Shown: piece after piece, positions 6,345 to 40,249 of the stretch
Layout of the letters: every line of letters begins with the position of its first letter
Numbering within the stretch: position 1 is the stretch's first letter
Source of the DNA: Paludibacteraceae bacterium
GTDB taxonomy: Bacteria; Bacteroidota; Bacteroidia; Bacteroidales; Paludibacteraceae
Length of the DNA: 53,478 nucleotides
Assembly: GCA_017559385.1 (NCBI GenBank)
Contig: JAFYSK010000048.1
Coordinates: 1 to 53,478, forward strand
Direction of reading: 5' to 3'
Notes under the pieces: model-generated
The model's input: the letters and a program-made list of their open reading frames with translations, nothing else
Database searches by the model: none
What the model was told of the DNA's origin: nothing
Program-made: the position numbers and the translations under genes

Positions 6345-6349
6345 CATGT
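6345..6349. repeat. Target-site duplication, left copy (CATGT)
   Basis: The 5-bp word CATGT occurs here and at 40099-40103 in direct orientation at the two host/phage junctions. Five base pairs is the duplication length made by phage Mu. Deleting everything between plus one copy restores the dprA frame exactly. Confidence 0.8.
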
Positions 6350-6356
6350 ACGGGCA

Positions 6357-6374
6357 GGAAAATGAAAGGTGCAT
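6357..6374 (+). promoter_or_regulatory. Left end site L1 (putative transposase binding)
   Basis: GGAAAATGAAAGGTGCAT, 7 bp inside the left terminus. Its core AAAATGAAAGGTGCA is repeated exactly at 7246-7260 and, inverted, at 40052-40066 at the right end. Sites near both termini in inverted orientation are what MuA-type transposases bind. Confidence 0.6.
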
Positions 6375-6448
6375 AGCCTAAAATGGTCTTTTGATTGGTT
6401 ATGAGGGAGTTATGCAATATGGCGCGATAAAATGAATTGTGCATAACT

Positions 6449-6531
6449 GTGCATTTACTTGGCATTTACTTGGCATAAGGGAGGTTAAACGCCTCCTTTT
6501 TTTGTGCATTTACTTGGCATTCACTTGGCAT
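6449..6531. repeat. Left-end tandem 11-bp repeats around a terminator
   Basis: On the minus strand the 11-mer ATGCCAAGTRA occurs as two tandem pairs, each ending in ATGCAC (6449-6476 and 6504-6531), with 55 bp between the pairs. Between them (6479-6503) GGAGG...CCTCC followed by T7 forms an intrinsic terminator on the plus strand, which could stop host transcription from entering the phage. The repeats may bind the transposase or repressor. Confidence 0.6.
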
Positions 6532-7245
6532 GGGCTTCACACGCGTAAATAACAACAACCAAAGAACCGACTTGCCGCTGCGGCGATGGTACCATAAAAA
6601 TGCCTCAAATGACACCCAAAACAAACGCTTTTCCTTAAATAAAATAACGCACGCTACATACACATATACACGCGCGCGTAAAAGACCGCTTAAATAGCTC
6701 ATTTTGACGCGTTTAAGGCGGTTTTGTTGTTTGTATGGGTAAACGGTCAGGCGCTGCGGATCAATGTCCAGAGAACGCAATTTCAAAATGTCGCTGGAAA
6801 GGGCGTTACTCAGGGCGAATAACAACCATAATACAGGACATTTATAGGACAATTAGCCCGCTAAAAAAGGCGTTTAATAGGCTATTAAAGGGCAATAAAA
6901 AGGGCGTTAATTGGTCATTTATGCTGCGGTTAAATATACCCAAAAAAAGGCTGATTTTCGCAATGGGTGGACATATTGGATGTACAAATGGGCGGACAAA
7001 TGGGCGGACAAAACTCTGAATTACCCCCCTCTGAATAACCCCCTTTAAGACACCAAAGTTTGGAGTATAGACCCCTTTAATGCACTTTTTGTGCAGGAAC
7101 AAACATACCTTAATGTACCAAAAATAACGCGAATCACCCCCTTTAAGTACCTTTTTTTGCACGAAAAATGTAGTTAATACGCACAAAATCAGCATTTTAA
7201 CGATTTTTACCTACTTGAAAGGTCTAAAAACGGCTAATTCAGGGT
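6532..7245. other. Non-coding left-end region of the prophage
   Basis: No convincing gene; the two minus-strand open frames here are low-complexity. Visible structure includes the inverted repeat ACCGCTTAAA/TTTAAGGCGGT near 6685-6730, a tandem 'gggcggacaaat' repeat near 6985-7010, and three spaced copies of CCCCTTTAA (about 7039, 7072, 7137). In Mu the left end holds transposase and repressor sites, and these repeats may have that role here. Confidence 0.4.
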
Positions 7246-7285
7246 AAAATGAAAGGTGCAACCCTATAAGAGCTGCACCCTATTA
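7244..7285 (-). terminator. Repressor terminator / internal end site L2
   Basis: GGTGCA (7255-7260) and TGCACC (7274-7279) form a hairpin on the minus strand followed by TTTCATTTT, just after the repressor stop. The same sequence contains the 15-bp core AAAATGAAAGGTGCA (7246-7260) shared with the left and right end sites, so it may serve as both terminator and inner transposase site. Confidence 0.55.
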
Positions 7286-7304
7286 TTATATATGGAAATT
7301 TTTC

Positions 7305-7997
7305 CTACTCGAATCGAATTGCACCGAGGACTATAGACAGCGAACGGATCTCAGTTTTGGGCAATTCAAAGGGCGGATAGTTTGGGTTATCCGACTTGCA
7401 AATGACATAATCTGTATCCTCATCACACGGAAAGAGGCGCTTCACCATAGCACCCTGTTCGGAGTCAATCACATAGATCTTGCCCCATTGTATGAAATGG
7501 TATGAGGTCAGCTTACGGCATGCCAGTATGTCGCCACTGGAATACTTAGGGTACATGCTGGAACCACTCACGCGGATCATAAACTCAGCATTAAGCTGCT
7601 GAAATTCGGGTACCAGATAGCGTTGGCAGTCGTGTATCTGTATGGTAGGCGAATCAATTCCGTTGAAGCCAGCCACCGCATCCACCGGAATAAGTGGGAT
7701 ACCCGCCTGCGTAAGGCAGGTGGTAGGTTGGTTCGTCCTTGGTTCGTCCTTGGTTCGTGGTTGGTTTTTTACAGGTATGGTACATAGCATATCCCCCTCA
7801 CCTGTCAGGAGCCATGTTTTACTGAATGTCGGATATTTTTCCAAGATCAACGCAACTAAGTCTGCGCTTAGTTTCTTGGTTTTCCCCCTTTGAAGGTCAT
7901 ACAACTTGGTTAGTGAGTATCCGAGAATATCGGAAAATTCACGTGTGTTAAGCTTTAATTCGGACAAAATTGCCCCTAAAATGTCCTTAGATTCCAT
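7305..7997 (-). CDS. LexA/CI-like phage repressor
   Basis: A 230-residue protein: an N-terminal helix-turn-helix (about 1-60, 'TREFSDILGYSLTKLYDLQRG') that binds operators, a short linker, and a C-terminal S24 self-cleaving domain. The catalytic Ser147 is in 'VSGSSMYP' and Lys186 in 'GAMVKRLF'; the candidate cleavage bond is Ala109-Gly110 in 'VDAVAGF'. By analogy with LexA and lambda CI, activated RecA would trigger cleavage and prophage induction. An upstream in-frame ATG would add seven residues (MYFFVFF), but the start at 7997 matches the usual repressor beginning. The linker is coded by three tandem 11-bp repeats (about 7728-7760), a likely unstable stretch. It is transcribed away from the early operon; its stop codon overlaps a GGA-N6-TCC motif also present in the intergenic region. 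Confidence 0.88.
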   Translation of the reverse strand: MESKDILGAILSELKLNTREFSDILGYSLTKLYDLQRGKTKKLSADLVALILEKYPTFSKTWLLTGEGDMLCTIPVKNQPRTKDEPRTNQPTTCLTQAGIPLIPVDAVAGFNGIDSPTIQIHDCQRYLVPEFQQLNAEFMIRVSGSSMYPKYSSGDILACRKLTSYHFIQWGKIYVIDSEQGAMVKRLFPCDEDTDYVICKSDNPNYPPFELPKTEIRSLSIVLGAIRFE

Positions 7998-8021
7998 AAA
8001 AAACACAAAAAAATACACAAA

Positions 8022-8761: not shown

Positions 8762-10798
8762 ATGGAAGCGGTAGTTCATATAAATAACAGAGTCGGCATT
8801 AGCATGCAGTGGTTATTAGACCATGGTGTCGCTACTGTAGGCATTTTGCAGAAGCGCGAGCAACGCGGCAAGTTGGTCGCATTAACACGCGGCGGTCGTG
8901 GCGTACAGAAGGTGTACGAGTACAAGACCATGCCCGAAGATATGAAGCGTATGATAGACGAGCGATTAGATGTGTACCAGGGCGTATGTCGTAACATACT
9001 GGAGCCATGTATCGAGCATAGTGCAGAGATTAGTCAGTATTTCGACGAGTACAAGACCGCGAAAGGTGCTCACTTGCCTAATTCGAAAGAGGCACCTGTT
9101 CGTCAGACCTACTACTACAACGCAATTGTGTTGGATGGTATCATTCGCCTCTTTGAAACATGCAAGCAGAAAGGTCAGAAGGTCAGTTGGTCACAGGTGT
9201 TGGAGGCGTTGTGCGGTTTAGATCGATTGGCATACCCATTCAGTTTGCCAGAGAATGAGCGCAAGCTGAAAGAGCGTGTGAAGGAATACCAGCGTGAGGG
9301 CTTGGAGTGCCTTATCCACAAGAACTACCGCCGTGTGGGTAGTGGCAGCACCAAGGTTCACGCTGGTTTGCAATCGGACATGCTCATCAGCATGATAGCT
9401 GAGCACCGCAATTTTGACTGCGAAGAGATAGCCAAGGTATATAACGAATGGGTGCGCATGCAGAAGGCGCAAGGCGCTGACCATGCAGAGCAATGGAAAG
9501 AGATCACCGGCAGCACCGTTCGCCTATGGCAAAAGAAGAGCCGCTTTATCACAACTGCGAGTAAGCATGGTGGTGCGGCCTACCGTAACAGCCTTGCCTA
9601 TACCGTTCAACGCAGCGCCCCCACCAAAGCCATGTACATGTGGGTGCTCGACGGCTGGGACGCAGAGCTGCTGTATCAGAAAAAGGACGGTAAGGGTCGC
9701 ACCACTTATCATAACCGCGTAACACTGGAGGTGGTATTAGACGCTGCTACCAAATACCCAATCGGCTACGCCATAGGCATCACCGAGAGTGCAGAACTGA
9801 TCCGTGAGGCGCTACGCAATGCTGAGCGTCATGTGGAAGAGTTGACCGGTACCATGCTTCGCCCTCATCAGATCCAATGCGATAACTTCGCCAAGAAGGC
9901 TATGAGTGAGACCTACGAGGGTTTGGCAGCATTGGCAGTTACTCCAGCGGCTGTAGGTAATGCCAAAGCCAAAGTGATTGAGCCTTGGTTCCGTCATTTC
10001 AACGACAAGGTGTGCAAGTATGCGTTCAACTGGTCTGGTCACGGTGTGACTGCCAAGAAAAACGGTCAGCCCAATTTGGATATCACCCTCAAGGACAAAA
10101 GCCAACTGCCAACCTTGGAAGAGTTGGTCACAGAGATTAGCGCGCTGATGTGGCGCTATCGCCAAGAGGCATTGCCAGCGTATGTAGAGGCTATCAACGC
10201 ATTGCCAGCGGGAGAACGCGTGGCATTACCAGTGAAGCAATACCTACAGTTGTTTGGTGAGCAACGCGAAGACAAATATAGCTTGCAGACTACAGGTATC
10301 AACCTGCGTGTATTGGGCGAACGCCACCAATACGACCTGTTGGCAGATCCTGATGATGCAGTTGCCATGGCAGAGGCTATCCGCTTCCGTGAGAACTGCT
10401 GGGAGAAATGGAATGTGAAGTGTGATCCATTCGACTACAGCCATATTTTGGTGTTCAACGACAAAGCTACAGAAGAATATGTCCTGACCGTGAAGGATGT
10501 GCAGCCTATGGCACTCAAAGACCGCAAGCCTGGCGACTACGAGAAACTGGCAGCGGTATGGAAGTTCAACAAGGCATTAGAGGCACATATCGCTAATACC
10601 CTGGGCGGACATCAGGAGCGTGCTATGGCAGCCCTTGAGTCAACCGACAGCCGCGAATATGAAATGCTCAGCAAGGCATTGATTACCGACAGCCATGGTC
10701 AGCACAAAGATAATAAATACCGTGCAGAACGCGCCTTACCCGCTGCACCTGTCAACGCCTTTGAGGTGGTAACAGAGTACACAGAAGACAGATATTAA
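8762..10798 (+). CDS. MuA-type DDE transposase
   Basis: This 678-residue protein should cut the phage ends and join them to target DNA for integration and replicative transposition. The N-terminal part (about 1-260) holds winged-helix/HTH DNA-binding regions, including 'GTMKRMID'-like segments and 'GSGSTKVHAGLQSD'. The integrase-fold core carries the acidic triad: Asp297 in 'MWVLDGWD', Asp374 in 'IQCDNFAKK' and Glu407 in 'AKVIEPWFRHFND', 33 residues after the second Asp. A C-terminal beta-barrel and a tail that would contact the ATPase follow, like the layout of MuA (663 residues). It is followed 34 bp later by the MuB-like gene, as in Mu. Best single marker that the element is a transposable phage. 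Confidence 0.93.
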   Translation: MEAVVHINNRVGISMQWLLDHGVATVGILQKREQRGKLVALTRGGRGVQKVYEYKTMPEDMKRMIDERLDVYQGVCRNILEPCIEHSAEISQYFDEYKTAKGAHLPNSKEAPVRQTYYYNAIVLDGIIRLFETCKQKGQKVSWSQVLEALCGLDRLAYPFSLPENERKLKERVKEYQREGLECLIHKNYRRVGSGSTKVHAGLQSDMLISMIAEHRNFDCEEIAKVYNEWVRMQKAQGADHAEQWKEITGSTVRLWQKKSRFITTASKHGGAAYRNSLAYTVQRSAPTKAMYMWVLDGWDAELLYQKKDGKGRTTYHNRVTLEVVLDAATKYPIGYAIGITESAELIREALRNAERHVEELTGTMLRPHQIQCDNFAKKAMSETYEGLAALAVTPAAVGNAKAKVIEPWFRHFNDKVCKYAFNWSGHGVTAKKNGQPNLDITLKDKSQLPTLEELVTEISALMWRYRQEALPAYVEAINALPAGERVALPVKQYLQLFGEQREDKYSLQTTGINLRVLGERHQYDLLADPDDAVAMAEAIRFRENCWEKWNVKCDPFDYSHILVFNDKATEEYVLTVKDVQPMALKDRKPGDYEKLAAVWKFNKALEAHIANTLGGHQERAMAALESTDSREYEMLSKALITDSHGQHKDNKYRAERALPAAPVNAFEVVTEYTEDRY

Positions 10799-12822: not shown

Positions 12823-13338
12823 ATGGCAACAAGACAAAAGAAGACCATTATCCAAGGTGTTACCACCGAGATGGCAAACGAAGCATTTGCGACCTATGCG
12901 AAAGCGGACGCACAGTATCAAAAAATCATGGCGGAGATAGAGCTGCAATGCGCTCGTATCCGCGAGAAGAAACAAGAGGAACTGACGGCATTGGCGGCAG
13001 AGCGCGATGCTGCTTTTGACACACTCCAGACCTTCGCCACCGAGAACCAGGCAGAACTATTCGCCAAGAAGAAAAGCCTTGAGATGGTGCATGGTACCAT
13101 TGGCTTCCGCACGGGTACTCCAAAGCTCAAGACCCTCAAGGGCTTCACATGGGCAAGTGCTAAGAACCTCGTCTGCGAGTTCCTGCCTGCATTCATTCGC
13201 ACCACCGAAGAGATTGCCAAGGACAAACTCTTGGCGGACCGCGATGTGGAAGGCATGACCGAGAAAATGGCTCAATGTGGTATCATGGTGGCGCAAGACG
13301 AAACCTTCTATGTAGAGCCTAAGAAAGAAGATGCGTAA
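12823..13338 (+). CDS. Mu Gam-like host-nuclease inhibitor
   Basis: A 171-residue protein with a long N-terminal coiled coil (about 20-85, rich in Ala, Glu and Lys) and a C-terminal 'KKKSLEMVHGTIGFRTGTPKLKTLKG' region typical of Mu Gam. Gam binds the ends of double-stranded DNA as a Ku-like dimer and protects it from exonucleases such as RecBCD or AddAB. It follows the GemA-like gene, and its stop codon overlaps the ATG of the next small gene. Confidence 0.85.
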   Translation: MATRQKKTIIQGVTTEMANEAFATYAKADAQYQKIMAEIELQCARIREKKQEELTALAAERDAAFDTLQTFATENQAELFAKKKSLEMVHGTIGFRTGTPKLKTLKGFTWASAKNLVCEFLPAFIRTTEEIAKDKLLADRDVEGMTEKMAQCGIMVAQDETFYVEPKKEDA

Positions 13339-15185: not shown

Positions 15186-15626
15186 TCAATAGCTTTGCTG
15201 TACATGTACCCGATAAACTTCTGTGTTGTCTTGCAACTCATCGTGATCGTGGTCGCTGGTAGAGCTAATCCGTGTGAATGATCCAATGCTATATGTCGGA
15301 GCTATCTTCCGAACGCGTGCCAGAACTGGAGGTATTTTATCGATGATGTCGAACACCTGGAGTGAATCTTTCCACTTGCCCACACGCGAGTCGGTAACAA
15401 TATGCAGCGTAATATCCACCTCTGCATCTAACACGCCCCGCGTCTGTGATTTCCAAGAAATAGGTGCAAACTCTACAAATACAGCTGGAGTACTGAATGG
15501 CTGTTCCTCTTCTGCAAATGCCAGTTGATTATTCCACACATCGATGTGCTGAATAATACTCTGTTCTTCTGCGTCTTTTATCGAGAGTAGGAAACTCTCC
15601 AATAAATGGTAAATTTGACTTCTCAT
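15186..15626 (-). CDS. Putative tail-completion/head-tail protein
   Basis: A 146-residue protein at the end of the leftward late operon. 'YHLLESFLLSIKDAE' at the start and 'PAVFVEFAPISW' and 'DAEVDITLHIVTDSR' in the middle resemble small phage proteins that follow the virion morphogenesis gene (Mu gp37 position; tail terminator or completion proteins). The start overlaps the stop of the preceding gpG-like gene (ATGA), so the two are coupled. A His/Asp-rich segment (about 120-128) is notable. Role inferred from position. Confidence 0.5.
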   Translation of the reverse strand: MRSQIYHLLESFLLSIKDAEEQSIIQHIDVWNNQLAFAEEEQPFSTPAVFVEFAPISWKSQTRGVLDAEVDITLHIVTDSRVGKWKDSLQVFDIIDKIPPVLARVRKIAPTYSIGSFTRISSTSDHDHDELQDNTEVYRVHVQQSY

Positions 15627-16162
15627 TGTTTGAAATGCTTTTTAAGTTGTGTTGGAATGGTGTTTAATTGCTGTTTAATGATACGGCGGACCGCTTGCTT
15701 TACTTCGGGCGCATCGCCTAAGAATTGTCGCTTAGGAATGGTTATATACGAGCCTACAGGCTTTAGAGCCAGTGCGTAGTACATTTCAGCAGCACGACTG
15801 ACACGCATAGAACTGCGTGCGGTGGATCCGTCTTTCTTGTAGTTGATTTTGCCCGATAGTTCATAGTACTTTGCCCAAAAGTATTTTTGCATTTTGCGTG
15901 TGACCATGATCCTGCCACCTTCATTATGCAGAGCTGCGTATGGCTCCGATGACGACCATGTGACAGAGGTGTCCGATTGCCTGGCCCGAATAGAACGACG
16001 GAGTTTGCCTGTTTGTTGCATGAGTGATCCACGCAGGTCTTTGTCATTGCGGCGTGGCTTCCACGGCTGGGAAAAGAACCCCTTTCGCTCAAAGTTACGG
16101 TCGAACTCTTCTGTGAGTTCAACGCGTATATCGGATAGTATTTGCTTGCGAAGTTCGTCCAT
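15623..16162 (-). CDS. gpG-like virion morphogenesis protein
   Basis: A 179-residue protein of the phage virion morphogenesis (Mu gpG) type. Hallmarks: a basic N-terminal region 'RKGFFSQPWKPRRNDKD', 'GSLMQQTGKLRRSIRAR', the conserved 'YAALHNEGGRI' and 'IPKRQFLGDAPEV'. These proteins help join head and tail. It lies downstream of the gpF-like gene in the leftward late operon, separated from it by the oppositely transcribed gene at 16247. Confidence 0.85.
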   Translation of the reverse strand: MDELRKQILSDIRVELTEEFDRNFERKGFFSQPWKPRRNDKDLRGSLMQQTGKLRRSIRARQSDTSVTWSSSEPYAALHNEGGRIMVTRKMQKYFWAKYYELSGKINYKKDGSTARSSMRVSRAAEMYYALALKPVGSYITIPKRQFLGDAPEVKQAVRRIIKQQLNTIPTQLKKHFKQ

Positions 16163-16206
16163 TTGGGTAAAAAATCAATTATATTGATTATTTTTCAGCA
16201 AAAAAG

Positions 16207-16237
16207 TTTGTTATTTCAAAAAAAAGTAGTACTTTTG
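16207..16237 (+). promoter_or_regulatory. Promoter of antisense gene 16247
   Basis: TTTG (16207-16210), exactly 19 bp, TACTTTTG (16230-16237): a perfect consensus promoter pointing right, 9 bp before the ATG at 16247 and opposite to the surrounding late operon. Confidence 0.85.
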
Positions 16238-16246
16238 TAGCGTATT

Positions 16247-29941: not shown

Positions 29942-29965
29942 AGTACTACATCTGTAATTCTGCTG

Positions 29966-29996: not shown

Positions 29997-30011
29997 ATTT
30001 TTTCTAAAAAA

Positions 30012-31829
30012 ATGGCAAATGAGTCTGTAAAATTCACAATTGAACTTGGAGGAAATGCCTATTCGGGTGTCGCCCAATTGGATAGTGCGGTCCAACAAGT
30101 AGTCAAAAGTGTGAATAAAGCAAATGGATTATTCAAACAACTGGGCAACACTGCTTTTATGTTTGAGTCCGTTGTAGGTGCTGTTGAGAAGATTAGTTCT
30201 GGTTTAGATTCTTTAGTTGGCAGTAGTCTGGAGTTCGAGCAATCGCAGGCAAATATGCGCACGCTGATGAACGGCAATGCAGAGGCTGCTGACGCATTGC
30301 TCAGCAAGATTCGCTCTTACGGCAAATCCACGGTCTATGACACCAGTGGACTTGTCAATGCGCAAAAGACGATGATGGCTTTTGGATTGGAGGCAGACAC
30401 TGCGTTTAAGAGCCTGCAACACATAGGCGACATCGCCCTGGGCGATAGCCAGAAGATGCAATCTCTTGCCCTGGCATTCGCACAAGCACAGAGTACTGGA
30501 AAACTCATGGGGCAAGACCTTATGCAGATGATCAATGCGGGTTTTAACCCATTAGAGGTCATCAGCCAACGCACAGGCAAGTCCATTGCCACACTCAAGG
30601 ACGAGATGAGCAAAGGTGCTATCTCCGCACAAATGGTCGCACAGGCATTCCAATGGGCGACAGAGGAAGGCGGTCGGTTCTACCAAGGCGCAGAAACAGC
30701 CGCGCAGACAGTCAGCGGTAGGATTGCTAAAATGCGCGACACAGTGGACGAATGGAAACTATCGCTTTTCGAAGCCACCGGAGGACTGACCGCGTATGTC
30801 GCAGAAGTTGGAAAGATGATAGCTCAATTTGCGCCACTTGGTCCGTTGGTTGGCAAAACCTTTGATTGGATGCGCATTGCTGGCGTCAAAGCGTTTACAG
30901 AACTTAAGATAGGTGGCCACACCTTACAAGTTCGCCTGCGTGCCATCAGCATAGCAGCCGTGCAATCAGGCGGTATGCTTAAACTTATGGGGCACATGGG
31001 TCAAGCAGCTTGCCGACAAATCAGTGTAGCCATTATGAATATCCCTATTATTGGTTGGATTGCTGCCATAATTGCAGTGGTAATTGCTGTGATTGCTGCT
31101 ATTGTGAAGGGCATAAAAACCTTATGGGAAAAATGCTACGAATTTCGAGTGGTTATATTCACAATATGGGAAGCTATCAAAGCTATATTCACTTGGATAG
31201 TAGATGGCTTGAAATCTCTTTGGGCTGGATTCCAAGAAAATATCATTGACCCTATTTGGGGCTTTATTACCAGTATCGCAGGTTGGATAAATGAGCATAT
31301 TTTACAACCTGTTTGGAATGCTATTCTTAATGTTGTAAATTGGATCAACAAACATTTGGTAGAGCCTATTAAAAATGCCTTTGCATCAATTGGAGCATGG
31401 TTTAGTGATATTTTTGGAAGTATCTTTGACTGGTTTGAGAAACAGTTCGTTAACATATATAATAAAATTGCTAAGGTCATTCCAGGCATGAAACAAATTG
31501 CCTATGAGGGTCGTAAACGAGCTGATGAGTCATGGGCAAAAGACCACCCAACCACAACCAATACCACCGACAACCTCATCAACACCGTCAATGCTCCTCT
31601 GCAAACTATGCAAAGTAGCGGAGGTGCAGCTGCTAACGGAACTACAGGTAATGCAACAACCGCTGTAGCTACAGGCGGCACACGTAACACTGAAATACAT
31701 ATCAACATCGGTGATATGATTAAGCAGGTAACCTTTAATGGTACTACTCGTGAAAACCAACAAGAGATTGAGCGTACATTTGCCGAGTGCCTCAATCGTG
31801 TATTAGGAATGGCTCAAGTAAGTATATAG
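30012..31829 (+). CDS. Tape measure protein
   Basis: A 605-residue tail-length ruler. The N-terminal third has the tape-measure domain: 'SSLEFEQSQANMRTLMNG', 'KIRSYGKSTVYDTSGLVNAQKTMMAFG' (core 'YDTSGLVNAQKTMMAFG'), 'GQDLMQMINAGFNPLEVIS' and 'VSGRIAKMRDTVDEWK'. Hydrophobic membrane-like helices in the middle ('IIGWIAAIIAVVIAVIAAIV') may form the DNA channel. The C-terminal part has Trp-rich repeats and an Asn/Thr/Ala-rich linker. It is short for the gene class, suggesting a short tail. Plus-strand start overlaps the promoter region of the antisense gene 29783. Confidence 0.87.
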   Translation: MANESVKFTIELGGNAYSGVAQLDSAVQQVVKSVNKANGLFKQLGNTAFMFESVVGAVEKISSGLDSLVGSSLEFEQSQANMRTLMNGNAEAADALLSKIRSYGKSTVYDTSGLVNAQKTMMAFGLEADTAFKSLQHIGDIALGDSQKMQSLALAFAQAQSTGKLMGQDLMQMINAGFNPLEVISQRTGKSIATLKDEMSKGAISAQMVAQAFQWATEEGGRFYQGAETAAQTVSGRIAKMRDTVDEWKLSLFEATGGLTAYVAEVGKMIAQFAPLGPLVGKTFDWMRIAGVKAFTELKIGGHTLQVRLRAISIAAVQSGGMLKLMGHMGQAACRQISVAIMNIPIIGWIAAIIAVVIAVIAAIVKGIKTLWEKCYEFRVVIFTIWEAIKAIFTWIVDGLKSLWAGFQENIIDPIWGFITSIAGWINEHILQPVWNAILNVVNWINKHLVEPIKNAFASIGAWFSDIFGSIFDWFEKQFVNIYNKIAKVIPGMKQIAYEGRKRADESWAKDHPTTTNTTDNLINTVNAPLQTMQSSGGAAANGTTGNATTAVATGGTRNTEIHINIGDMIKQVTFNGTTRENQQEIERTFAECLNRVLGMAQVSI

Positions 31830-31830
31830 T

Positions 31831-32418
31831 ATGTTTTTTAACTTTGCACAACCCTTTGTATTTCCACCGTATTGGTTAAACAAACCAGTACGCACGATTG
31901 ATAAAGATACACCATTGCCTTCTGCGGCATCTGTACGTACAATTGATAAAGTGCATGACACGGATCTTTATACTTCGGAGTTATTGGGCAACCTCTATCA
32001 ATGTCCATTGGCTATCAAGTGGGAAGACGAGGCAAATTGGTGGCAACTGCCATTTGATCCTATTATCAGCGTTAGTGGTAGCAATAGCATAGTCAGAACC
32101 GATGTGCTGCGTATGGATAATAGTCGCGAAGAACGCCGTGGCACAGTTAAAGAAGTATGGAGCCAACAAGACTACCAAGTCCAGATTGCAGGCATGTTCA
32201 TCGGAAGTAATGGTGATTTCCCTGAAAATGATATGCGCAAACTTCGCGCCTATTGCGAAGAGCGCAAAGTAATAGAAGTTATGTGCTCCTTATTGGATGT
32301 GTTTGGTATCAATCGCCTTGCTATTGAGAGTTTCGATTTCGCCCACACGCCAGGATATGAAAACCAACAATTTGCCATTAAGGCATACAGCGATGAGGAT
32401 TTCTCTTTGCTGATTTAA
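31831..32418 (+). CDS. DUF6046-like tail/baseplate protein
   Basis: A 195-residue protein starting one base after the tape measure stop. 'SNSIVRTDVLRMDNSREERRGTVKEVWSQQDYQVQIAGMFIG' (core 'RGTVKEVWSQQDYQVQI') and 'REYCEER'-type helices resemble a family of Bacteroides phage tail proteins that I know as DUF6046. Position between tape measure and baseplate J suggests that it links tail tube and baseplate (position of Mu gp43). Role inferred. Confidence 0.5.
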   Translation: MFFNFAQPFVFPPYWLNKPVRTIDKDTPLPSAASVRTIDKVHDTDLYTSELLGNLYQCPLAIKWEDEANWWQLPFDPIISVSGSNSIVRTDVLRMDNSREERRGTVKEVWSQQDYQVQIAGMFIGSNGDFPENDMRKLRAYCEERKVIEVMCSLLDVFGINRLAIESFDFAHTPGYENQQFAIKAYSDEDFSLLI

Positions 32419-32429
32419 TAAAATATATT

Positions 32430-33305
32430 ATGCGTACAATCACCGACATTAAAAAAGAACTCACCGACGCTTTCATGGCAAACGAGAATTTGCAAAAGGC
32501 GTATGGTTTTGCACCTGGCACTGCTTTCGACAAGCAGTTTAGCCGTGTTTCACTCGAAAGCTTACTTTTGTATATCGTAGCTTTCGCACAATGGACCTTA
32601 GAAAAACTCTTTGACACCCACACGCAGGAGGTAGAGGAGTATATCTCCACTATGAAGCCACACACGCTGCGCTGGTACCAAGAGAAAGCCAAGGCGTTCT
32701 TGTTTGGCTTGCCACTCATCGCTGGCACAGACCAGTTCGACACTACAGGCAAAAGTGACGAGGATATTGCTGGTGCACAGGTGGTCAAGTTCGCCGCTGT
32801 CACAGAATCAGGCGCAACGCTTTACCTCAAAATTGCAGGCGAGGAGAACGGTCGCCCTAAGAAACTCACCACCGAACAGAAGACAGCCTTTGAGGCATAC
32901 CTACACGAGTTCAAGGACGCAGGTGTGCGTGTGGATGTCACCAGCGAGCAAGGTGACTATTTGCGCCTATCCTTGGATGTGTATTACAACCCGCTACTCT
33001 TGGCGGCAGACGGTCAAAGTAAGAGCGATGGCACTTACCCTGTAGAGGACGCTATCAAGTCCTACATTGAGCAATTGCCTTTCAATGGTGAGTACCGCAA
33101 CAATGCCCTTGTGGACGCAATCCAAGCCACCAAGGGAGTAGCTATGGTGCAACTACATAGTGCAGCTCAGAGTGTGGACAATGTGACCTATAACCCTGTA
33201 ACTGCTTTTTGCACTCCTTTCGAAGGTTACTTCGAGTATGACCGCGACGGAGTGAAGACTATCCAATCTATCAATTACATCCCTTATGGCACAGATGAAA
33301 ATTGA
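32430..33305 (+). CDS. Baseplate protein J/Mu gp47-like
   Basis: A 291-residue baseplate wedge protein. 'RWYQEKAKAFLFG', 'AGAQVVKFAAVTESGATLYLKIAGE' (core 'VKFAAVTESGATLYLKI'), 'DAGVRVDVTSEQGDYLRL' and 'YIEQLPFNGEYRNNALVDAI' match the J-type architecture. It overlaps the next gene (ATGAAAATTGA). Confidence 0.75.
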   Translation: MRTITDIKKELTDAFMANENLQKAYGFAPGTAFDKQFSRVSLESLLLYIVAFAQWTLEKLFDTHTQEVEEYISTMKPHTLRWYQEKAKAFLFGLPLIAGTDQFDTTGKSDEDIAGAQVVKFAAVTESGATLYLKIAGEENGRPKKLTTEQKTAFEAYLHEFKDAGVRVDVTSEQGDYLRLSLDVYYNPLLLAADGQSKSDGTYPVEDAIKSYIEQLPFNGEYRNNALVDAIQATKGVAMVQLHSAAQSVDNVTYNPVTAFCTPFEGYFEYDRDGVKTIQSINYIPYGTDEN

Positions 33306-33807
33306 TTACAATAAACTGGCTGTATTGTTGCTGCCGACATTCCTGCGCCAACCCATTCTAATGTCGTTGGCTCGCATACTCATGGTACCACTACAACGCC
33401 TACACGACGAGCACCATGCTGCGCGTGATGAACGAATGTACCAATTGCGACATACCAGCCAAATATGCCATATCAAGGACGCACTCAATCGTGAGTTTGC
33501 GGTCGGAAACCACGCTCTTACGCCCGACTATGCAGCGGGTTTCGAGATTGAAGACATCAACGCTATAGGTGACTGGGTAATGACATACGACGAGGTACCC
33601 GCGTTCGCAGATGTACATACCATGGCCGAAGACGATGATTATCTTTTAGTCTATGACGAAGCTATCATTACACAAGCCACACAGTCGTTTATTGTGTATG
33701 TGCCTAAAAGTGTTGCGTTCACTCCATCGCTGCCAAAGATTCGTGCTATTGTAGAACTATACCGATTGGGTTCGCGTAAACCTTTGTATATGATTAAAAA
33801 ATCCTAA
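33295..33807 (+). CDS. Baseplate/tail protein, Mu gp48-like
   Basis: A 170-residue protein starting MKIDYNKLAVLLLPTFLRQP; an in-frame ATG three codons earlier (33286) is possible. Family-like parts: 'LPTFLRQPILMSLARILMVPLQRLH' (core 'RQPILMSLARILMVPL') and 'QICHIKDALNREF'. In Mu, gp48 follows gp47 and connects baseplate to fibers. Overlaps the gp47-like stop, so translation is coupled. Confidence 0.6.
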   Translation: MKIDYNKLAVLLLPTFLRQPILMSLARILMVPLQRLHDEHHAARDERMYQLRHTSQICHIKDALNREFAVGNHALTPDYAAGFEIEDINAIGDWVMTYDEVPAFADVHTMAEDDDYLLVYDEAIITQATQSFIVYVPKSVAFTPSLPKIRAIVELYRLGSRKPLYMIKKS

Positions 33808-33811
33808 GAAT

Positions 33812-34741
33812 ATGAATAAACAGAATTTCAAAAATGGCAATGCAATGTTTCCGATCAGCACGGACGCATTGGAATTTATGCAAGAGCAAAATTGCTTGGT
33901 CGCTCGCCTTACTGAGTTGGCAGGTCCTTATGTGATCATATCTCAACCTGCAAATGGCAAAGCAGGTTTGTGCGTCTTTGATGGGGAATTACTACCATTA
34001 TCGGGAGATGCAGCCGCTACGCATATCGGTGTGACAGAAGTTAAAACGGACATTACAGCTCATGGTACCACATATAGGGATGCACGTGTTACGCGCGAAG
34101 CGGTGTATGGTACCAGTGGTGCACCTGCAAGTTCTTTTGTCGTATTAGACAATATGTCTGCACTCAAATCTGCCATTGCAAATCTTACTACAGCACTCAA
34201 TACAGAGGGGACAACCCGCGCAAGGCATGACATTCCCAAAGGAACAGTCATCGATTGGTATGGTACTATTGTTGTTTCAAATATGCCAGATAGCTTCTTG
34301 CCTTGTGGTAAAATTGTTGTTGGCAGTTTAGATCAAGTGCACACCGAACAAACATTGTGGCAAAATAAAATGCACGGAGGGCTTGAATTTGCTGAAGGTT
34401 ACAACGGAAATGGATACTATTACCGCATAAAATCATGGAATGGCTATACTATCCCTGATTTAACAGATCGCTTCATCGTTCAAGCAGGTGGTGAATATTC
34501 TTTAGGTAAGACAGGTGGAGAAAAAGAGCATAAATTGACTGTGAGAGAAATGCCGAGTCACTCACATGAAGTCACTGCGTATGTTTCGGGTAGTAATGGG
34601 TATGATAAATTTGGTATCATATCTGACCGTGATGTGACGACACCTAAAACATATACTCCGTTATCTGAAACGGGAGGAAACATCGCACACGAAAACCGTC
34701 CGCCATTCTTCGCTCTCTACAAACTAATCAAAGTGATTTAA
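33812..34741 (+). CDS. Tail fiber with collar-type tip
   Basis: A 309-residue fiber. The C-terminal part is a phage tail collar domain: 'KGTVIDWYGTIVVSNMPDSFLPC' (core 'GTVIDWYG'), 'GYTIPDLTDRFIVQAGGEYSLGKTGGE' (core 'PDLTDRFIVQAGGEYSLG'), 'LTVREMPSHSHEVTAY' and the end 'HENRPPFFALYKLIKVI'. The HSH motif in the collar domain binds metal at the tip. It may bind the host receptor. No reverse transcriptase or template repeat for diversification was found nearby. Confidence 0.82.
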   Translation: MNKQNFKNGNAMFPISTDALEFMQEQNCLVARLTELAGPYVIISQPANGKAGLCVFDGELLPLSGDAAATHIGVTEVKTDITAHGTTYRDARVTREAVYGTSGAPASSFVVLDNMSALKSAIANLTTALNTEGTTRARHDIPKGTVIDWYGTIVVSNMPDSFLPCGKIVVGSLDQVHTEQTLWQNKMHGGLEFAEGYNGNGYYYRIKSWNGYTIPDLTDRFIVQAGGEYSLGKTGGEKEHKLTVREMPSHSHEVTAYVSGSNGYDKFGIISDRDVTTPKTYTPLSETGGNIAHENRPPFFALYKLIKVI

Positions 34742-34765
34742 TAACCTTTTAATCGGTGTTTAATT

Positions 34766-36649
34766 ATGGATTTATTAACTATCATAACTTGGTTCCAAAA
34801 AGGCTGCAAGCCTACTGCAAAACAATTCGAAGCGGTATTTAGATCATTCTTCCACAAGGATGACAAAATCCCTCAATCGTCTATCGATGGTCTGCCAGCT
34901 GCGTTAGCTGCTAAGGCATCCGCTTCGCACACTCATACACTTAGCGATATCACAAATCTCTCTGATATTAGTAAAAAACAAGATAAGACAGACAACTCCC
35001 TGCTGACCACAGCCAAGAATATTGTCGATGCCATCAATGAGTTATGGGATAAACTCAATGAGTTGTGGAATAAACTTGCGGATTATCTCAAAGGCATTCA
35101 GCATGTCACCCATGAACAACTGGTGACGCTCCGGAACAATGCTGAGCTGAAACCAGGACAATGCTACCGCATTACCGACTATCTGACTACAGTCGCTAAT
35201 GATCCTGAAGCACGCAGTGCTGGTCATCCATTTGACTTGTTGGTTGTAGCTACTGATGTTGATACACTTTCAGAGGAAGCGCGAGTAATCAAAAGTTTGC
35301 GCAAAGACATGACCCCTGCACGTTTTTATTCCCCTTCTATGGGTGCATGGTTTGTTAGGGACGAAACGAATGATGGCATTTATAATGGGGAACAACTCTA
35401 TGCGTGGAGAAGTGCCGGAGAGTATGCTTTTACAAAGAAACTAATCCCAGAAGATAATGCAGATGTCTTTGTTGCTTTTGATACTGATGGTAATGGCTGG
35501 GGGACATTATATTCAATAGAAACCCTTGAGAATTTTAATGAAATTGGTGAGGATTTGGGTGATGTTATCAATTCAAATGAGTATTTTGCAGATGCCAATC
35601 TAAATGCGTGGAAAGTATGGTATTGTTTGGACAATGATGACACTCGATATAAATGGGCCGATACAGAGAACGGGAAAGGTGTTATTTGGCGCATGATTGA
35701 TGAATGGGGTAATGATTGTCCTTATGACTTCAAGAATGTGCAGTTCAAACGATATGCTATTCTTGGTATCACCAGTTCTAAACTCACAGAGGATGCTATT
35801 AGTTATCTTCAATCTGCGCTCTGTTATGACCAAAATGGAGGAAGATGCTTTGCGACCAAGGATGTCTATGGAAACTGGGTTCCAGTAGATGTTGATGGTA
35901 CCAGCTACGAGATAGACGAAACGCTGTTTGAATGGTACTACACTTTCCATAGTTTGAGTAGTCACGATGGCGAAACAATCATGGATAGTTATGACATGAG
36001 TACTCGTCCGTTCAAAATCTTAGATGAGTGTATCAAGTATTACAAGGAAGATGATTGTGGCATGGATAGTAAAGATGAGTGTCACGACAATATCATCAAA
36101 CCTGCTTATCAGGAATACGACCAAGATGATGAGTATTTCAAAGGGCGTTTAGTTCTAAACAACATCGTATTCCTGAACGGTCTTTCCTATTGCTATTACA
36201 ACGATATTGATGAGTATTGGGAGTATTGTAGTGGCTACTGCTATGGCAATGTGTTTGGTGTTGAGTGTAAAAACAACACATTCGGGAACAGTTTCCGAGT
36301 AAACACATTCGGGAACAACTGTTATTACAACACATTCGGGAACAATTGTTGGGGCAATACATTTGGGAGCTATTTCCAAACGAACACATTCGGGAACGGT
36401 TGTGGCAGTAATACATTCGGGAACAACGTTCGCTATCTCACTGTACATGATGGTGTTCAATGTGTTGCCGTGACAGGCGGAAGCAATAATTCCTATGTAC
36501 AATACGCCCAAATTCTAAATGGCACGCGTGGCCAAGACTCAAACAATAGGCTACAAATATCGTTCCAATCGAATGTGAATTATTGCCAATTTGCTGGGCA
36601 GAATAGTAGCGGAATTTTGAAGATTTGGGTCCCTGCTGATACTGCCTAA
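34766..36649 (+). CDS. Large tail fiber/adhesin with NTFGN repeats
   Basis: A 627-residue protein. The N-terminal 60 residues ('ITWFQKGCKPTAKQFEAVFRSFFHKDDKI', core 'KPTAKQFEAVFRSFFHKDD') are the usual virion-attachment part of Bacteroides phage fibers. A coiled segment with tandem 'LWDKLNELWNKL' follows, then a domain 'LKPGQCYRITDYLTT' also seen in such fibers, and then, near the end (about 504-557), six exact 9-residue repeats NTFGNxxxx that predict a right-handed beta-helix. The tip (about 560-627) is Ser/Asn/Gln rich. The variable positions of the repeats differ in every copy, which suits receptor binding. Last gene of the rightward late operon. Confidence 0.8.
   Translation: MDLLTIITWFQKGCKPTAKQFEAVFRSFFHKDDKIPQSSIDGLPAALAAKASASHTHTLSDITNLSDISKKQDKTDNSLLTTAKNIVDAINELWDKLNELWNKLADYLKGIQHVTHEQLVTLRNNAELKPGQCYRITDYLTTVANDPEARSAGHPFDLLVVATDVDTLSEEARVIKSLRKDMTPARFYSPSMGAWFVRDETNDGIYNGEQLYAWRSAGEYAFTKKLIPEDNADVFVAFDTDGNGWGTLYSIETLENFNEIGEDLGDVINSNEYFADANLNAWKVWYCLDNDDTRYKWADTENGKGVIWRMIDEWGNDCPYDFKNVQFKRYAILGITSSKLTEDAISYLQSALCYDQNGGRCFATKDVYGNWVPVDVDGTSYEIDETLFEWYYTFHSLSSHDGETIMDSYDMSTRPFKILDECIKYYKEDDCGMDSKDECHDNIIKPAYQEYDQDDEYFKGRLVLNNIVFLNGLSYCYYNDIDEYWEYCSGYCYGNVFGVECKNNTFGNSFRVNTFGNNCYYNTFGNNCWGNTFGSYFQTNTFGNGCGSNTFGNNVRYLTVHDGVQCVAVTGGSNNSYVQYAQILNGTRGQDSNNRLQISFQSNVNYCQFAGQNSSGILKIWVPADTA
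36275..36436 (+). repeat. 27-bp tandem repeats coding NTFGN
   Basis: Six in-frame 27-bp units, each starting AA(C/T)ACATT(C/T)GGG. DNA of the constant part is nearly identical, whereas the four variable codons differ, so it is a possible place for recombination and repeat-number change. Confidence 0.85.
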
Positions 36650-36857: not shown

Positions 36858-38006
36858 ATGCTCAAAAAAATTAGTTACAAATTGGTTTTTAACCGATCGA
36901 GAAGACTCAATCAAAGAGGCGAAGGTCTTATTCAGATTGAGTGTACACAACAAAAACGACGAATTTAGTTTAGTACACACACGTATGTTAAACCAGAAAA
37001 TTTCAGTCATGGGGCAGTTGTTGCGACCCCGAATGCCGACAGTCTAAACTATGTTCTCTATCAGATGATGCAGGAAGTGGAGCTGGTAGAATTGGAGTAC
37101 ATCAAAAAAGGTGTAGAAGTCCAGTTGCCTATGCTACGTGAAGCTGTGCGTTCTCAGATATCGCCAGCTGCTAAACTAACAGACTTTGGGACACAGGTTG
37201 TTGGACAAAGTGAACGCAAAAACCTCACAAAACTCAATTACCAGACATTGCTCAATAACATTGAACGATTCAGAAGAGGGGCACTCATCACTGACATTGA
37301 CTATCAGTTTTTAGTCAGTTATGACAAATGGTTGCGAGAAAGTGGGATTGCACACAACACACGCATTAGCCGACTTCGATTGCTCAGGGCTCTGCTTAAT
37401 GAAGCCCGGAAGCGTGATATTATTCACACAAACCCGTTTGACCGGTTCCGAATCCAACAAATGGTGTCAAAGAAAGGGTTCTTGACAATAGAGCAACTAC
37501 ACAGACTGGAGAAAATGCAGCTAAAAGGCTATGAGGATAAAGTGCGTGATGCGTTCCTTATTGGTTGCTACACTGGATTGCGATTCTCGGATATTGTATC
37601 ACTCCGGAATGAGCACATAGCAAGGGGATGGCTGACTAAGAAGATGGCAAAGACTGGCTTTATTGTCGAAGTCCCAATTGCAGAGTTGTTCGGAGGTAAA
37701 ATGGTACAACTGATTGAAAAGTACAATAGCAACATTGAGCGCCTTACAAAAAACCTCTCAAAAAATTCATCTGTCAATAAGACACTACGAAATATATTGG
37801 ATCGTATCAAAGTAGATCCAAAGATAACATTCCACTCATCACGCCACACATTTGCAACTCATTTAGGGCAAAGTGGCGTACAATTAACAACCATTCAAAA
37901 GCTACTTGGTCACCAAAAGCTACAAACAACACAAATATATAGCGAAGTGGACCGAAAAGCTATAACCAATGATCTCAAAAAAGGTCGCAAACGAATACAA
38001 CAATGA
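36858..38006 (+). pseudogene. Tyrosine recombinase broken by an amber codon
   Basis: The frame from the ATG at 36858 gives a typical Bacteroides integrase N-terminus ('YKLVFNRSRRLNQRGEGLIQ'), then an in-frame TAG at codon 37 (36966-36968), then continues as 'FSTHTYVKPENFSHGAVV' to 38006. Relatives have Tyr where TAG stands (RRIYFST), so one base change explains it. The C-terminal catalytic domain is intact: Arg in 'YTGLRFSDI', 'HSSRHTFATHLGQ' (His-x-x-Arg), 'LLGHQKLQTTQIY' (His and Tyr). A restart at the ATG at 37065 would lack the arm-binding domain. A Mu-like phage does not need an integrase; it may have inverted a nearby segment or may be a passenger. Confidence 0.8.
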
Positions 38007-38675: not shown

Positions 38676-38735
38676 CACAAAATTACTACATTTTTTTGAC
38701 ATAACCAAATTTTTGAACAGGAAAGGAGAATTTTC

Positions 38736-39374
38736 ATGAATCTTTACTACCAAATGTTGGACAAAATCATGTCCGACGGTCGTACTCAGACCAATAAGAA
38801 GGGCGGAATCAAGTACCTAACCAACGAGGTGCTGCACCTCACTCCAGCCGATTTGCTCGACATCTTCGAGACACACGGCATTGCGCGTAAGAAGCTCAAA
38901 ACGGAGTTGAGCATGTTCCAAGCTGGGATCACCTCTACCGAGCAATATCGCCAGGAGGGCATTACATGGTGGGACTATTGTGGGGAGCAACTCAAAAACA
39001 GTTACCCTACATACTTCAAGCGCTTGCCTAAACTCATCAAGAAGATCAATGCTGAGAAAAAGAACAGCAAGAACTATGTGCTGTTCTTAGGTGAAACGAA
39101 TGTAGAGACTAATCAGCAACCATGTTTGTCTCTGGTGCAATTTCAAATAGAAGATGGCATGTTGGTACTCAGCGCTTACCAACGCAGTTCTGACGCTAAT
39201 TTGGGACTGCCTGCTGACATCTACCATCTCTATTTGATGGCTCGTCAAATAGACTTACCTTTGAAGTCTATCACTTTGTTCCTGGGCAATGTGCATATCT
39301 ATGAATCCAACCTCTTGCGCACTTACGAACTCTTGAACGGTGCACAAGGTGTCAAATTTGAGTTGAACACATGA
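38736..39374 (+). CDS. Thymidylate synthase-family protein, probable dCMP-type
   Basis: A 212-residue, shortened member of the thymidylate synthase/dCMP hydroxymethylase family. The nucleophile is Cys130 in 'QQPCLSLVQFQIEDG'; then 'AYQRSSDANLGLPADIYHLYL' (core 'QRSSDANLGLPADI') and 'LFLGNVHIYESN'. In thymidylate synthases the residue after 'LGLPF/A' is Asn (E. coli Asn177), which reads the uracil; here it is Asp161, as in dCMP hydroxymethylases (T4) and in engineered synthases that switch to dCMP. It should therefore alter cytosine nucleotides for phage DNA. A good Shine-Dalgarno-like 'aaaggag' lies 8 bp upstream, rare in this phylum. The ATG of the methyltransferase overlaps its stop. Confidence 0.72.
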   Translation: MNLYYQMLDKIMSDGRTQTNKKGGIKYLTNEVLHLTPADLLDIFETHGIARKKLKTELSMFQAGITSTEQYRQEGITWWDYCGEQLKNSYPTYFKRLPKLIKKINAEKKNSKNYVLFLGETNVETNQQPCLSLVQFQIEDGMLVLSAYQRSSDANLGLPADIYHLYLMARQIDLPLKSITLFLGNVHIYESNLLRTYELLNGAQGVKFELNT

Positions 39375-39967
39375 AAGACTGGACAGGAAACAAACGCAGT
39401 GCACATGCTATGATAGGCTCGTCTGTAGGCGCATTAGGAGTGCGCCAGGAGCACGACTATTATGCTACTGATCCAAATGCTTTGACGAGCCTGTTACGCA
39501 TGAAAGAACTGCCGAAAGTAGTGTATGAATGTGCGTGTGGTGCAGGTCATTTAGCAGAGGTGTTGGTGGAGAATGGTCACAGTGTTGTGGCGACTGACTT
39601 GGTGCATCGAGGTTATGGTGTTGGAGGTGTGGACTTTCTCAAGGTGGAAAGGCTGCCAGAGGATTGCAATTGCATATTAACTAATCCACCGTACAAGTTC
39701 ACAATGGAGTTTATCGAGCATTCTTTGGAGTTGTTACCCGAAGGCGGAGAAGCTATTTTTCTGTTGAATGTGAATGCGCTTTCAGGTAAAGCGCGATATG
39801 AACGCTTCTACAAGCGTGGAGTACTGAAAGAAGTGTTTGTCTTTCCACGGCGTGTTCAATGCGCCAAGAATGGTGATTTTGCCTCGCAAAATGGTTCTGC
39901 GGTAAATTACGCTTGGTTTGTGTTTGAGAAAGGTTTTTGCGGTTCAACAGTTTTGCATTGGCTTTGA
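39371..39967 (+). CDS. DNA adenine-type methyltransferase
   Basis: A 198-residue protein with SAM-binding 'VYECACGAGHLAEVLVENGH' (core 'ECACGAGHLAEVL') and the catalytic 'ILTNPPYKFTMEF' (NPPY), the motif of N6-adenine or N4-cytosine enzymes. 'YYATDPNALTSLL' at the start is usual in phage adenine methylases. It overlaps the ThyA-like gene (ATGA). No restriction partner is present, so it protects phage DNA or marks it, in the place where Mu has its mom modification gene. Confidence 0.85.
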   Translation: MKDWTGNKRSAHAMIGSSVGALGVRQEHDYYATDPNALTSLLRMKELPKVVYECACGAGHLAEVLVENGHSVVATDLVHRGYGVGGVDFLKVERLPEDCNCILTNPPYKFTMEFIEHSLELLPEGGEAIFLLNVNALSGKARYERFYKRGVLKEVFVFPRRVQCAKNGDFASQNGSAVNYAWFVFEKGFCGSTVLHWL

Positions 39968-40023
39968 TTTGCTGTGTTTAATTAGTTTTCAAAAGGCATT
40001 TGAAACCGCTTCGAATGTAAATT

Positions 40024-40066
40024 AAAAGGTGCACTTTTCAATTTGAAAAAATGCACCTTTCATTTT
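40024..40066 (+). terminator. Right-end hairpin after methyltransferase
   Basis: AAAGGTGCA (40025-40033) pairs with TGCACCTTT (40052-40060), then CATTTT: a terminator for the rightward genes. Its arms are part of the end sites R2 and R3, so the two functions overlap. Confidence 0.55.
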
Positions 40067-40090
40067 GCAAAAGCGGACTTTTTAATTTGC
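40029..40090 (-). promoter_or_regulatory. Right end sites R1-R3 (putative transposase binding)
   Basis: Read inward on the minus strand: GCAAATTAAAAAGTCCGC (40090-40073), GCAAAATGAAAGGTGCAT (40068-40051) and TCAAATTGAAAAGTGCAC (40046-40029). The three related 18-mers start exactly 22 bp apart, and the first is 8 bp from the terminus. Mu also has three end sites at its right end, spaced about one site length. The middle one matches L1 on the left end. Confidence 0.72.
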
Positions 40091-40093
40091 CGA

Positions 40094-40249
40094 TTATACA
40101 TGTTCCATGGCTGCATTAGTGATCATATCGTCATGGTGTTTTATCACTTCGGTGGCACTACCATAGCGATCCAATAGCGTACGCACTAGCCTTGGACGCG
40201 TCTTGTTGCCCCAGGTCAGTGCAATCCTATATAACCATTCCTCACGCAT
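40094..40249 (-). pseudogene. dprA: dprA, 5' part cut off by the prophage
   Basis: Encodes the first 50 residues of DprA, 'MREEWLYRIALTWGNKTRPR' and on to 'NAAMEH', then a codon of phage DNA and a stop. 'YRIALT' and the spaced 'LLDRYGSATEVI' match DprA N-termini. The start overlaps the stop of the vanZ-like gene (ATGCGTGA), so dprA was the last gene of an upp-vanZ-dprA cluster. The remainder is at 5425-6349. Confidence 0.88.
40099..40103. repeat. Target-site duplication, right copy (CATGT)
   Basis: Direct copy of 6345-6349 at the right prophage junction, inside codons 49-51 of dprA. Confidence 0.8.

What the first reader, a model, noticed from the sequence alone, without database searches (positions are those of the whole stretch)
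6345..40103. Mu-like prophage splits dprA; a 5-bp repeat restores the frame
The 3' part of dprA (5425-6349) and its 5' part (40094-40249) lie 34 kb apart, on either side of the phage. Merging them through the direct repeat CATGT gives one in-frame 356-residue DprA. The host cluster was upp-vanZ-dprA. The lysogen should be impaired in natural transformation unless the phage excises or the fragment suffices.
Basis: partly seen in the sequence, partly recalled or inferred. Interest (0 to 1): 0.75.

Follow-up and report, generated by a model that had tools for sequence, protein, structure and literature searches.

The report
Transposable prophage interrupts host dprA gene
A virus that copies itself by jumping into bacterial DNA has landed inside a gut bacterium's gene for handling incoming DNA, cutting it in two; the event is real and cleanly delimited, but it is a landing of an ordinary kind for such viruses.

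Summary
dprA is split by a 33.75-kb transposable prophage. DprA homology of 29 same-genus genomes starts within two residues of the junction. Joining the host flanks gives a 356-residue DprA that aligns without gap at the junction in 13 of 14 related loci; 13 of 14 keep upp-vanZ-dprA-topoisomerase synteny.

One correction: related phages place the ends at TA[C/T]GGG... and ...GATTATA, so the prophage is 6349-40098 and the target duplication 4 bp (CATG), not 5. Six pairs of ends share a 4-mer; in three of them the fifth base differs; four other pairs share nothing. The 5-bp repeat alone is chance-level.

The transformation claim is only partly supported. The Rossmann and winged-helix domains stay open as a 346-aa frame starting in the phage, cut off from the probable upp promoter. 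Four of 33 same-genus genomes with a DprA hit naturally lack the N-terminal region, so the core may work; in Riemerella, SAM-less DprA restores transformation only weakly. Excision is not expected of a replicative transposer.

A new member of the hankyphage-like transposable phages, in a new gene.

The parts
5425..6348 (-). 3' part of host dprA (Rossmann-fold and winged-helix domains), with the left copy of the 4-bp duplication CATG at its edge (6345-6348)
   Evidence: PF02481 238.1 bits and PF17782 29.7 bits, both above cut-off; homology to 29 same-genus genomes starts at residue 38-42 of the ORF
5425..6465 (-). 346-aa chimeric open frame: host dprA 3' part plus 39 codons and a start codon from the phage left end
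   Evidence: ORF list; outward frame of 39 open codons with ATG at codons 32 and 39; not conserved in the sister phage L042, whose outward frames are 14, 20 and 17 codons
6349..40098 (+). Transposable prophage, 33,750 bp, ends TACGGGCAGG...GCCGATTATA
   Evidence: Left end shared with L042 next to other sequence; T before ATGGGG in 20 of 20 motif matches, 16 distinct flanks, with one exception outside that set, L216, which has A; right end ...GATTATA in 28 motif matches, of which 27 have sequence beyond, all different
6359..7260 (+). Three left-end copies of the motif AAAATGAAAGGTGCA (6359-6373, 6429-6443, 7246-7260), possible transposase sites
   Evidence: 0, 2 and 0 mismatches
40019..40066 (.). 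Right-end copies of the same motif (40052-40066 minus, 40030-40044 minus, 40019-40033 plus; the last two overlap)
   Evidence: 0, 2 and 2 mismatches; the two end regions together (4,150 nt) hold 8 hits with up to 4 mismatches against a mean of 0.945 per 4,150 nt of phage interior
7253..7281 (-). Intrinsic-terminator-like hairpin just past the repressor gene, facing dprA
   Evidence: 13 pairs, 6 GC; consensus scan only, and the number of such sites in the stretch (5) is not above shuffles (3.7, sd 2.0)
7305..8018 (-). CI-type repressor
   Evidence: phrog_4 1.3e-22, phrog_6201 1.1e-12
8762..10798 (+). MuA-like transposase
   Evidence: phrog_310 1.2e-34; 80% identical to L042/L043, 65% to L044
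10833..11708 (+). MuB-like ATPase
   Evidence: phrog_296 9.5e-52
12823..13338 (+). Mu Gam-like end-protection protein
   Evidence: phrog_491 5e-36
15186..36649 (.). Head, packaging and tail genes: head morphogenesis, portal, amidase, terminase large subunit, major head protein, tail sheath, tape measure, baseplate, tail fibres
   Evidence: PHROGs
37065..38006 (+). Tyrosine recombinase beside the tail-fibre gene
   Evidence: PF00589 4.3e-21, PF13102 7.6e-17
38736..39374 (+). Thymidylate-synthase-like protein near the right end
   Evidence: PF00303 4.9e-19; 70% identical to the p00 hankyphage protein
39371..39967 (+). DNA-methyltransferase-like protein
   Evidence: phrog_799 1.5e-52; no Pfam hit
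40099..40249 (-). 5' part of host dprA (SAM-like N-terminal domain, about 50 codons), with the right copy of CATG at 40099-40102; runs into a stop just inside the phage
   Evidence: 'SAM-like' is by analogy with characterised DprA (PMC6533540), not by a domain hit
40242..40619 (-). VanZ-like small protein, overlapping the dprA start by 8 nt
   Evidence: PF04892 24.1 bits, below its cut-off of 30.1; synteny
40629..41291 (-). upp, uracil phosphoribosyltransferase
   Evidence: PF14681 8.2e-37
41317..41348 (-). Bacteroidota-type promoter motif TTTG-N-TAnnTTTG in front of upp, probable promoter of the former upp-vanZ-dprA unit
   Evidence: 6 matches in the window against 1.69 expected; 2 of 100 shuffles reach 6; motif recalled, function inferred
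2453..5134 (-). Type IIA topoisomerase subunit A, found downstream of dprA in all 14 compared loci
   Evidence: PF00521 8.6e-107

Best explanation
A hankyphage-like transposable phage inserted by its MuA-type transposase at about codon 50 of dprA in a Paludibacteraceae bacterium, duplicating the 4 bp CATG (shown by sequence comparison; the transposase's role is inferred from its family). The insertion looks recent, since both dprA parts are free of stops and frameshifts (shown). The site was picked by the phage's usual loose target choice, a 4-bp target often with AT in the middle, and not because it is dprA (inferred). Transcription of upp-vanZ-dprA from the upp promoter now runs into the phage right end (inferred), leaving an N-terminal stub of about 50 residues; the Rossmann and winged-helix core can be made only from the chimeric frame, if some transcript reaches it (inferred). 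The expected result is a lysogen with strongly reduced, perhaps not zero, DprA function (inferred).
For: Homology break at the junction in 29 same-genus genomes; join without gap at the junction in 13 of 14 loci and synteny in 13 of 14; MuA, MuB, Gam, repressor and morphogenesis genes; left end shared with L042 next to other sequence; 27 right ends with sequence beyond them, all different, and 16 distinct left flanks all with T next to ATGGGG; a 4-bp repeat in 6 pairs of ends; target 4-mers with AT at positions 2-3 in 15 of 40 against a 9.1% background (nominal p about 1e-6; noticed and tested on largely the same sites, so post hoc), a symmetry that fits a 4-bp better than a 5-bp cut. A study of Porphyromonas phages of the same candidate family reports 4-bp bounding repeats (PMC10367356, passages). 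SAM-less DprA in Riemerella: 2.4e-8 against 6e-5 for wild type and none detected for the deletion (PMC6533540, passages and section 20).
Against: No conspecific genome or reads with the empty site could be consulted. Four other pairs of ends showed no repeat: G028 (read), L125/L216 and two hankyphage records; they may be rearranged, packaged or mixed, but they are misses. L216 has A, not T, before ATGGGG, so the terminal T is not universal. Of the 13 records a left end was located in 4, and of the 8 records a right end in none, so most could not be tested. The first hankyphage paper reports 5-bp repeats (PMC6199706, passage). Reduced DprA function, and even competence of this host, are untested. 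The pair L238/L141 joins two records of one genome by inference.
Confidence: 0.87

Rival explanations
1. The chimeric 346-aa DprA is expressed and works, so the lysogen is not notably impaired: the lost N-terminal domain is dispensable in this genus, and the phage end supplies the start codon.
For: Both DprA Pfam domains intact. 4 of 33 same-genus genomes with a DprA hit (G003, G006, G022, G034) have upp-dprA-topoisomerase with no vanZ and without the DprA N-terminal region, DprA starting at about the first residues of the Rossmann domain. ATG at codons 32 and 39 of the outward frame.
Against: The probable upp promoter is cut off; a terminator-like hairpin lies past the repressor gene (such hairpins are not more frequent there than in shuffles), and no promoter-like match lies on the minus strand between 6345 and 7310 in either scan, only two -7-like hits. 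In Riemerella the SAM-less protein restored transformation only to a level about 2,500-fold below wild type, from a strong promoter.
Confidence: 0.25
2. The insertion was selected because it stops transformation-mediated removal of the prophage (chromosomal curing), as argued for prophages in comYC and other competence genes.
For: Precedents: comYC, ssbB, comEC, comM disrupted by mobile elements, and a pneumococcal prophage that lowers transformation by raising DprA levels (PMC12637031 and PMC11472951, passages).
Against: The phage group inserts at many sites (27 different right flanks); a search of 193 loci fetched for related phages and their genes found neither dprA nor comEC, though many of them hold little host flank; a single case.
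Confidence: 0.08
3. Misassembly or binning artefact of the metagenome-assembled genome.
For: The genome is a draft (70 contigs, 84.9% complete, 3.5% contaminated).
Against: Both flanks belong to one conserved gene block and complement each other exactly, with a 4-bp repeat at independently defined phage ends; with equal base frequencies that 4-mer match has a chance of 1 in 256.
Confidence: 0.02

Closest known systems
Hankyphage p00 and the candidate family Alisviridae (Bacteroides, Porphyromonas)
   Same: MuA-like transposase near the left end, thymidylate synthase and DNA methyltransferase at the right end, related terminase; a MuB-like ATPase and a CI-like repressor are reported for hankyphage (PMC12135933, passages); p00 ends start with TA, read inward TAAGGGG and TAAATCC; non-site-specific insertion and 4-bp repeats reported for the family (PMC10367356, passages)
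   Different: Terminase 33.7% and MuA 23% identical to p00; a tyrosine recombinase lies between tail fibre and thymidylate synthase, where p00 has its reverse transcriptase; no reverse transcriptase found among 32 phage proteins scanned
Elizabethkingia phage TCUEAP3
   Same: Best MuA match among annotated phage records, 32.3% over 94%
   Different: Only the transposase was compared
Escherichia phage Mu
   Same: Replicative-transposition gene set: repressor, A, B, Gam; several repeated motifs at each end (comparison with Mu recalled)
   Different: Mu duplicates 5 bp (recalled; the title of Allet 1979 is cited in PMC6199706) and has TG...CA ends (recalled); here 4 bp and TA...TA
Mobile elements in competence genes (pneumococcal prophage in comYC, AbaR in comM)
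   Same: Mobile element interrupts a transformation gene
   Different: The comYC prophages use an attB site and AbaR is Tn7-like and targets comM; here the phage group inserts at many sites and dprA is one case

Membership tests
[quoted passage not shown]
   phrog_310 and phrog_296; p00 transposase 23.3% over 83%
Hankyphage-like transposable phages (candidate Alisviridae) | Non-site-specific insertion with conserved termini and 4-bp bounding repeats outside the phage | tested here: met
   27 different right flanks and the window's own CATG pair; 6 of 10 pairs of ends found in this wider group share a 4-mer, 4 do not
Hankyphage-like transposable phages (candidate Alisviridae) | Family-level whole-genome relatedness | tested here: inconclusive
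   single genes only: terminase 33.7%, MuA 23%, thymidylate synthase 70% to p00; no genome-wide distance computed
Hankyphage proper | Diversity-generating retroelement with reverse transcriptase | tested here: not met
   no reverse transcriptase among 32 phage proteins scanned, which include 18 of the 19 listed phage ORFs of 200 aa or more; template repeats were not searched for
Muvirus (phage Mu) | 5-bp target duplication | tested here: not met
   4 bp favoured by the related pairs; the window alone, with CATGT on both sides, would allow 5
DprA | Rossmann-fold domain PF02481 above cut-off | tested here: met
   238.1 bits against 29.6
DprA | N-terminal SAM-like domain (present in many, not all, DprA) | tested here: not met
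   replaced in the chimeric frame by phage-encoded residues; also absent in 4 congeners

The most novel reading that the evidence does not exclude
The phage end acts as an adapter: by donating a start codon and 39 residues it leaves the host with a SAM-less, differently controlled DprA, turning transformation down without abolishing it and so shielding the prophage from being replaced by imported DNA.
Probability: 0.06. Interest if true: 0.6.

Novelty: new member of a known kind. Interest (0 to 1): 0.3.

Why it matters
It gives ends and a 4-bp target duplication for a transposable phage lineage of Paludibacteraceae, a family found in herbivore guts, and offers a simple explanation for the two published values (5 bp and 4 bp) for this phage group: a T that is nearly always the first base of the left end can pass for a fifth repeated base. 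It also shows that congeners keep a DprA without its N-terminal region, which makes the role of that region testable.

Tried and rejected
Statistical weight of the 5-bp repeat alone: rejected, chance-level. TG...CA phage ends with no duplication: considered because 6348 and 40101 allow it; rejected, since near-identical related phages diverge right after GATTATA. A conserved outward-reading frame at the phage end: rejected, not present in L042. A second DprA in the genome: only a 28-bit hit below cut-off on C27, fetched but not studied. Selection on dprA by dN/dS: inconclusive, no usable dS. Left ends in the 13 records: located in 4. Right ends of eight further records (L250-L257): none credible (one chance GGAG match after a partial motif in L253). 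The pattern TTTGCNGATTATA in 16 records: no match. Hankyphage records PQ571285 and PQ571268: both ends found, no shared repeat. MuB as a viral query gave only contigs already found. Literature searches for a prophage in dprA: 0 papers; 4 papers, listing seen; passages of one read; 42 papers, 20 listed; passages of one read; no listed title or abstract and no passage seen reports it, but only open-licence papers are held and I did not read the rest. (transformation in Bacteroidales with dprA): 0 papers.
Full report
Host and setting. The window is contig C57 of a 2.0-Mb draft genome (70 contigs, 84.9% complete). Its DprA is closest to metagenome-assembled genomes titled Paludibacteraceae, most from hindgut or faeces of cattle, buffalo, sheep, deer and horse (best 81% identity, L052). 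The host name rests on these neighbours; the window's own record is not named.

The split. The minus-strand frame 5425-6465 (346 aa) carries both DprA Pfam domains. In a search of 61 genomes, own included, 56 match; 33 of 36 same-genus relatives match, 29 of them starting at residue 38-42, so the first 39 residues are not DprA. The missing N-terminus lies at 40099-40249, next to vanZ and upp. Joining the two host flanks gives a 356-residue frame. Of the 21 loci, I compared 14 closely (11 titled Paludibacteraceae, 3 Bacteroidales): 13 align to both parts with no gap at the junction (L064 has a divergent N-terminus), and 13 keep upp-vanZ-dprA-topoisomerase order (L065 shows no vanZ hit). The 7 more distant loci matched only the dprA 3' part.

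How strong is the repeat. By itself CATGT is weak: 17 shared 5-mers occur among 14,641 nearby position pairs, 6 of them giving an open frame. Independent phage ends were therefore needed. L042, a sister phage fragment (MuA 80% identical), shares the left end after about 190 nt of other sequence. Twenty viral contigs with a left-end motif of more distant relatives give 16 distinct flanks, and in all 20 the base before ATGGGG is T; one further left end, L216, has A there. At the right, 28 matches to the end motif ...GATTATA were found in the 80 loci; 27 have sequence beyond, all different. Hankyphage p00 is deposited with ends TAAGGGG and, read inward, TAAATCC. So the T at 6349 most likely belongs to the phage, and the prophage is 6349-40098.

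The duplication. With these ends, six pairs share the adjacent 4-mer: the window CATG, L209/L086 CCTC, L213/L075 CATC, L217/L091 TTTT, G104 CCTA, L238/L141 CAAA; counting the T as host gives a fifth matching base in only three. L238 and L141 are two records of one genome, paired by inference. Four pairs show no repeat: G028, L216/L125, PQ571285, PQ571268; the last two are induced phage genomes whose flanks may be packaged host DNA. Other records could not be tested because one end was not found. Over 40 target 4-mers, AT stands at positions 2-3 in 15, against 9.1% in the flanks (a post hoc test on sites first seen), a symmetry centred between bases 2 and 3, as a 4-bp stagger predicts. Passages of PMC10367356 report 4-bp bounding repeats for transposable Porphyromonas phages of the candidate family that includes hankyphage; a passage of PMC6199706 reports 5 bp for hankyphage. 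The present data favour 4 bp for this wider group; they do not include a clean hankyphage pair.

The phage. Left to right: repressor, MuA, MuB, an ATPase, Gam, head and packaging block, tail block, tail fibres, tyrosine recombinase, thymidylate-synthase-like and methyltransferase-like proteins. Copies of AAAATGAAAGGTGCA with up to 2 mismatches stand at both ends, three on each side (two on the right overlap); with up to 4 mismatches the ends hold 8 against 0.945 per equal length of interior. They may be transposase sites as in Mu (comparison recalled). The phage looks complete; activity is unknown.

Consequences. The probable upp promoter motif (41317-41348) now feeds a stub of about 50 codons that meets a stop inside the phage. 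The core of DprA remains open as a chimera with phage start codons, but the outward frame is an accident of this phage: L042 has none of that length. A terminator-like hairpin follows the repressor gene, though such hairpins are no commoner there than in shuffles, and no promoter-like match faces dprA between 6345 and 7310. Four of 33 same-genus genomes with a DprA hit lack vanZ and the DprA N-terminus yet keep an open, 52-54% identical core, so that part is dispensable for keeping the gene, though not necessarily for full transformation. In Riemerella anatipestifer, also Bacteroidota, wild type gives 6e-5, SAM-less DprA from a strong promoter 2.4e-8, the deletion nothing above 4.2e-10 (PMC6533540, passages and section 20). 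Best guess: strong reduction, not necessarily loss. ComEC and ComM-type proteins are present, but their families also match 10 and 13 of 14 control genomes, so competence is not shown.

Targeting. Nothing suggests dprA is a preferred site: 193 loci fetched for related phages and their genes hold neither dprA nor comEC, though many have little host flank. Prophages and islands in other competence genes are known, and one pneumococcal prophage acts by raising DprA (passages); the curing-avoidance idea is kept only as a low-probability rival.

Verdict. A real, well-delimited insertion by a new member of a known phage group. Its interest lies in the corrected ends and in the naturally short DprA of congeners, not in the disruption itself.

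Noticed in passing
38736-39374: Thymidylate-synthase-like protein at the phage right end is 70% identical to that of hankyphage p00, far more than terminase (34%) or MuA (23%); of 115 viral loci found, the best 80 were kept, at 69-88% identity. It may serve DNA base modification, or the module may have been exchanged recently.
   Followed up: partly
37065-38006 and 38559-38615: Tyrosine recombinase next to a tail-fibre gene with internal repeats, and a perfect 16-bp inverted repeat 38559-38574 / 38600-38615; possible DNA-inversion switch, or something else.
   Followed up: no
L258, L259, L260, L261: Four same-genus genomes lack both vanZ and the DprA N-terminal region, leaving upp-dprA-topoisomerase; whether this was one event was not tested.
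   Followed up: partly
L048 (G028 contig C1): About 100 nt past the right end of the G028 prophage another left-end-like sequence begins, so two related elements may lie nearly side by side.
   Followed up: no
L222, L225, L233, L235, L236: Five viral contigs share the same sequence left of the phage end (..CCTCTT), so this may be a conserved arrangement and not five insertions; they were counted as one flank.
   Followed up: no
L216: A left-end-like sequence with A instead of T before ATGGGG, possibly a longer TAATGGGG end as in hankyphage TAAGGGG.
   Followed up: no
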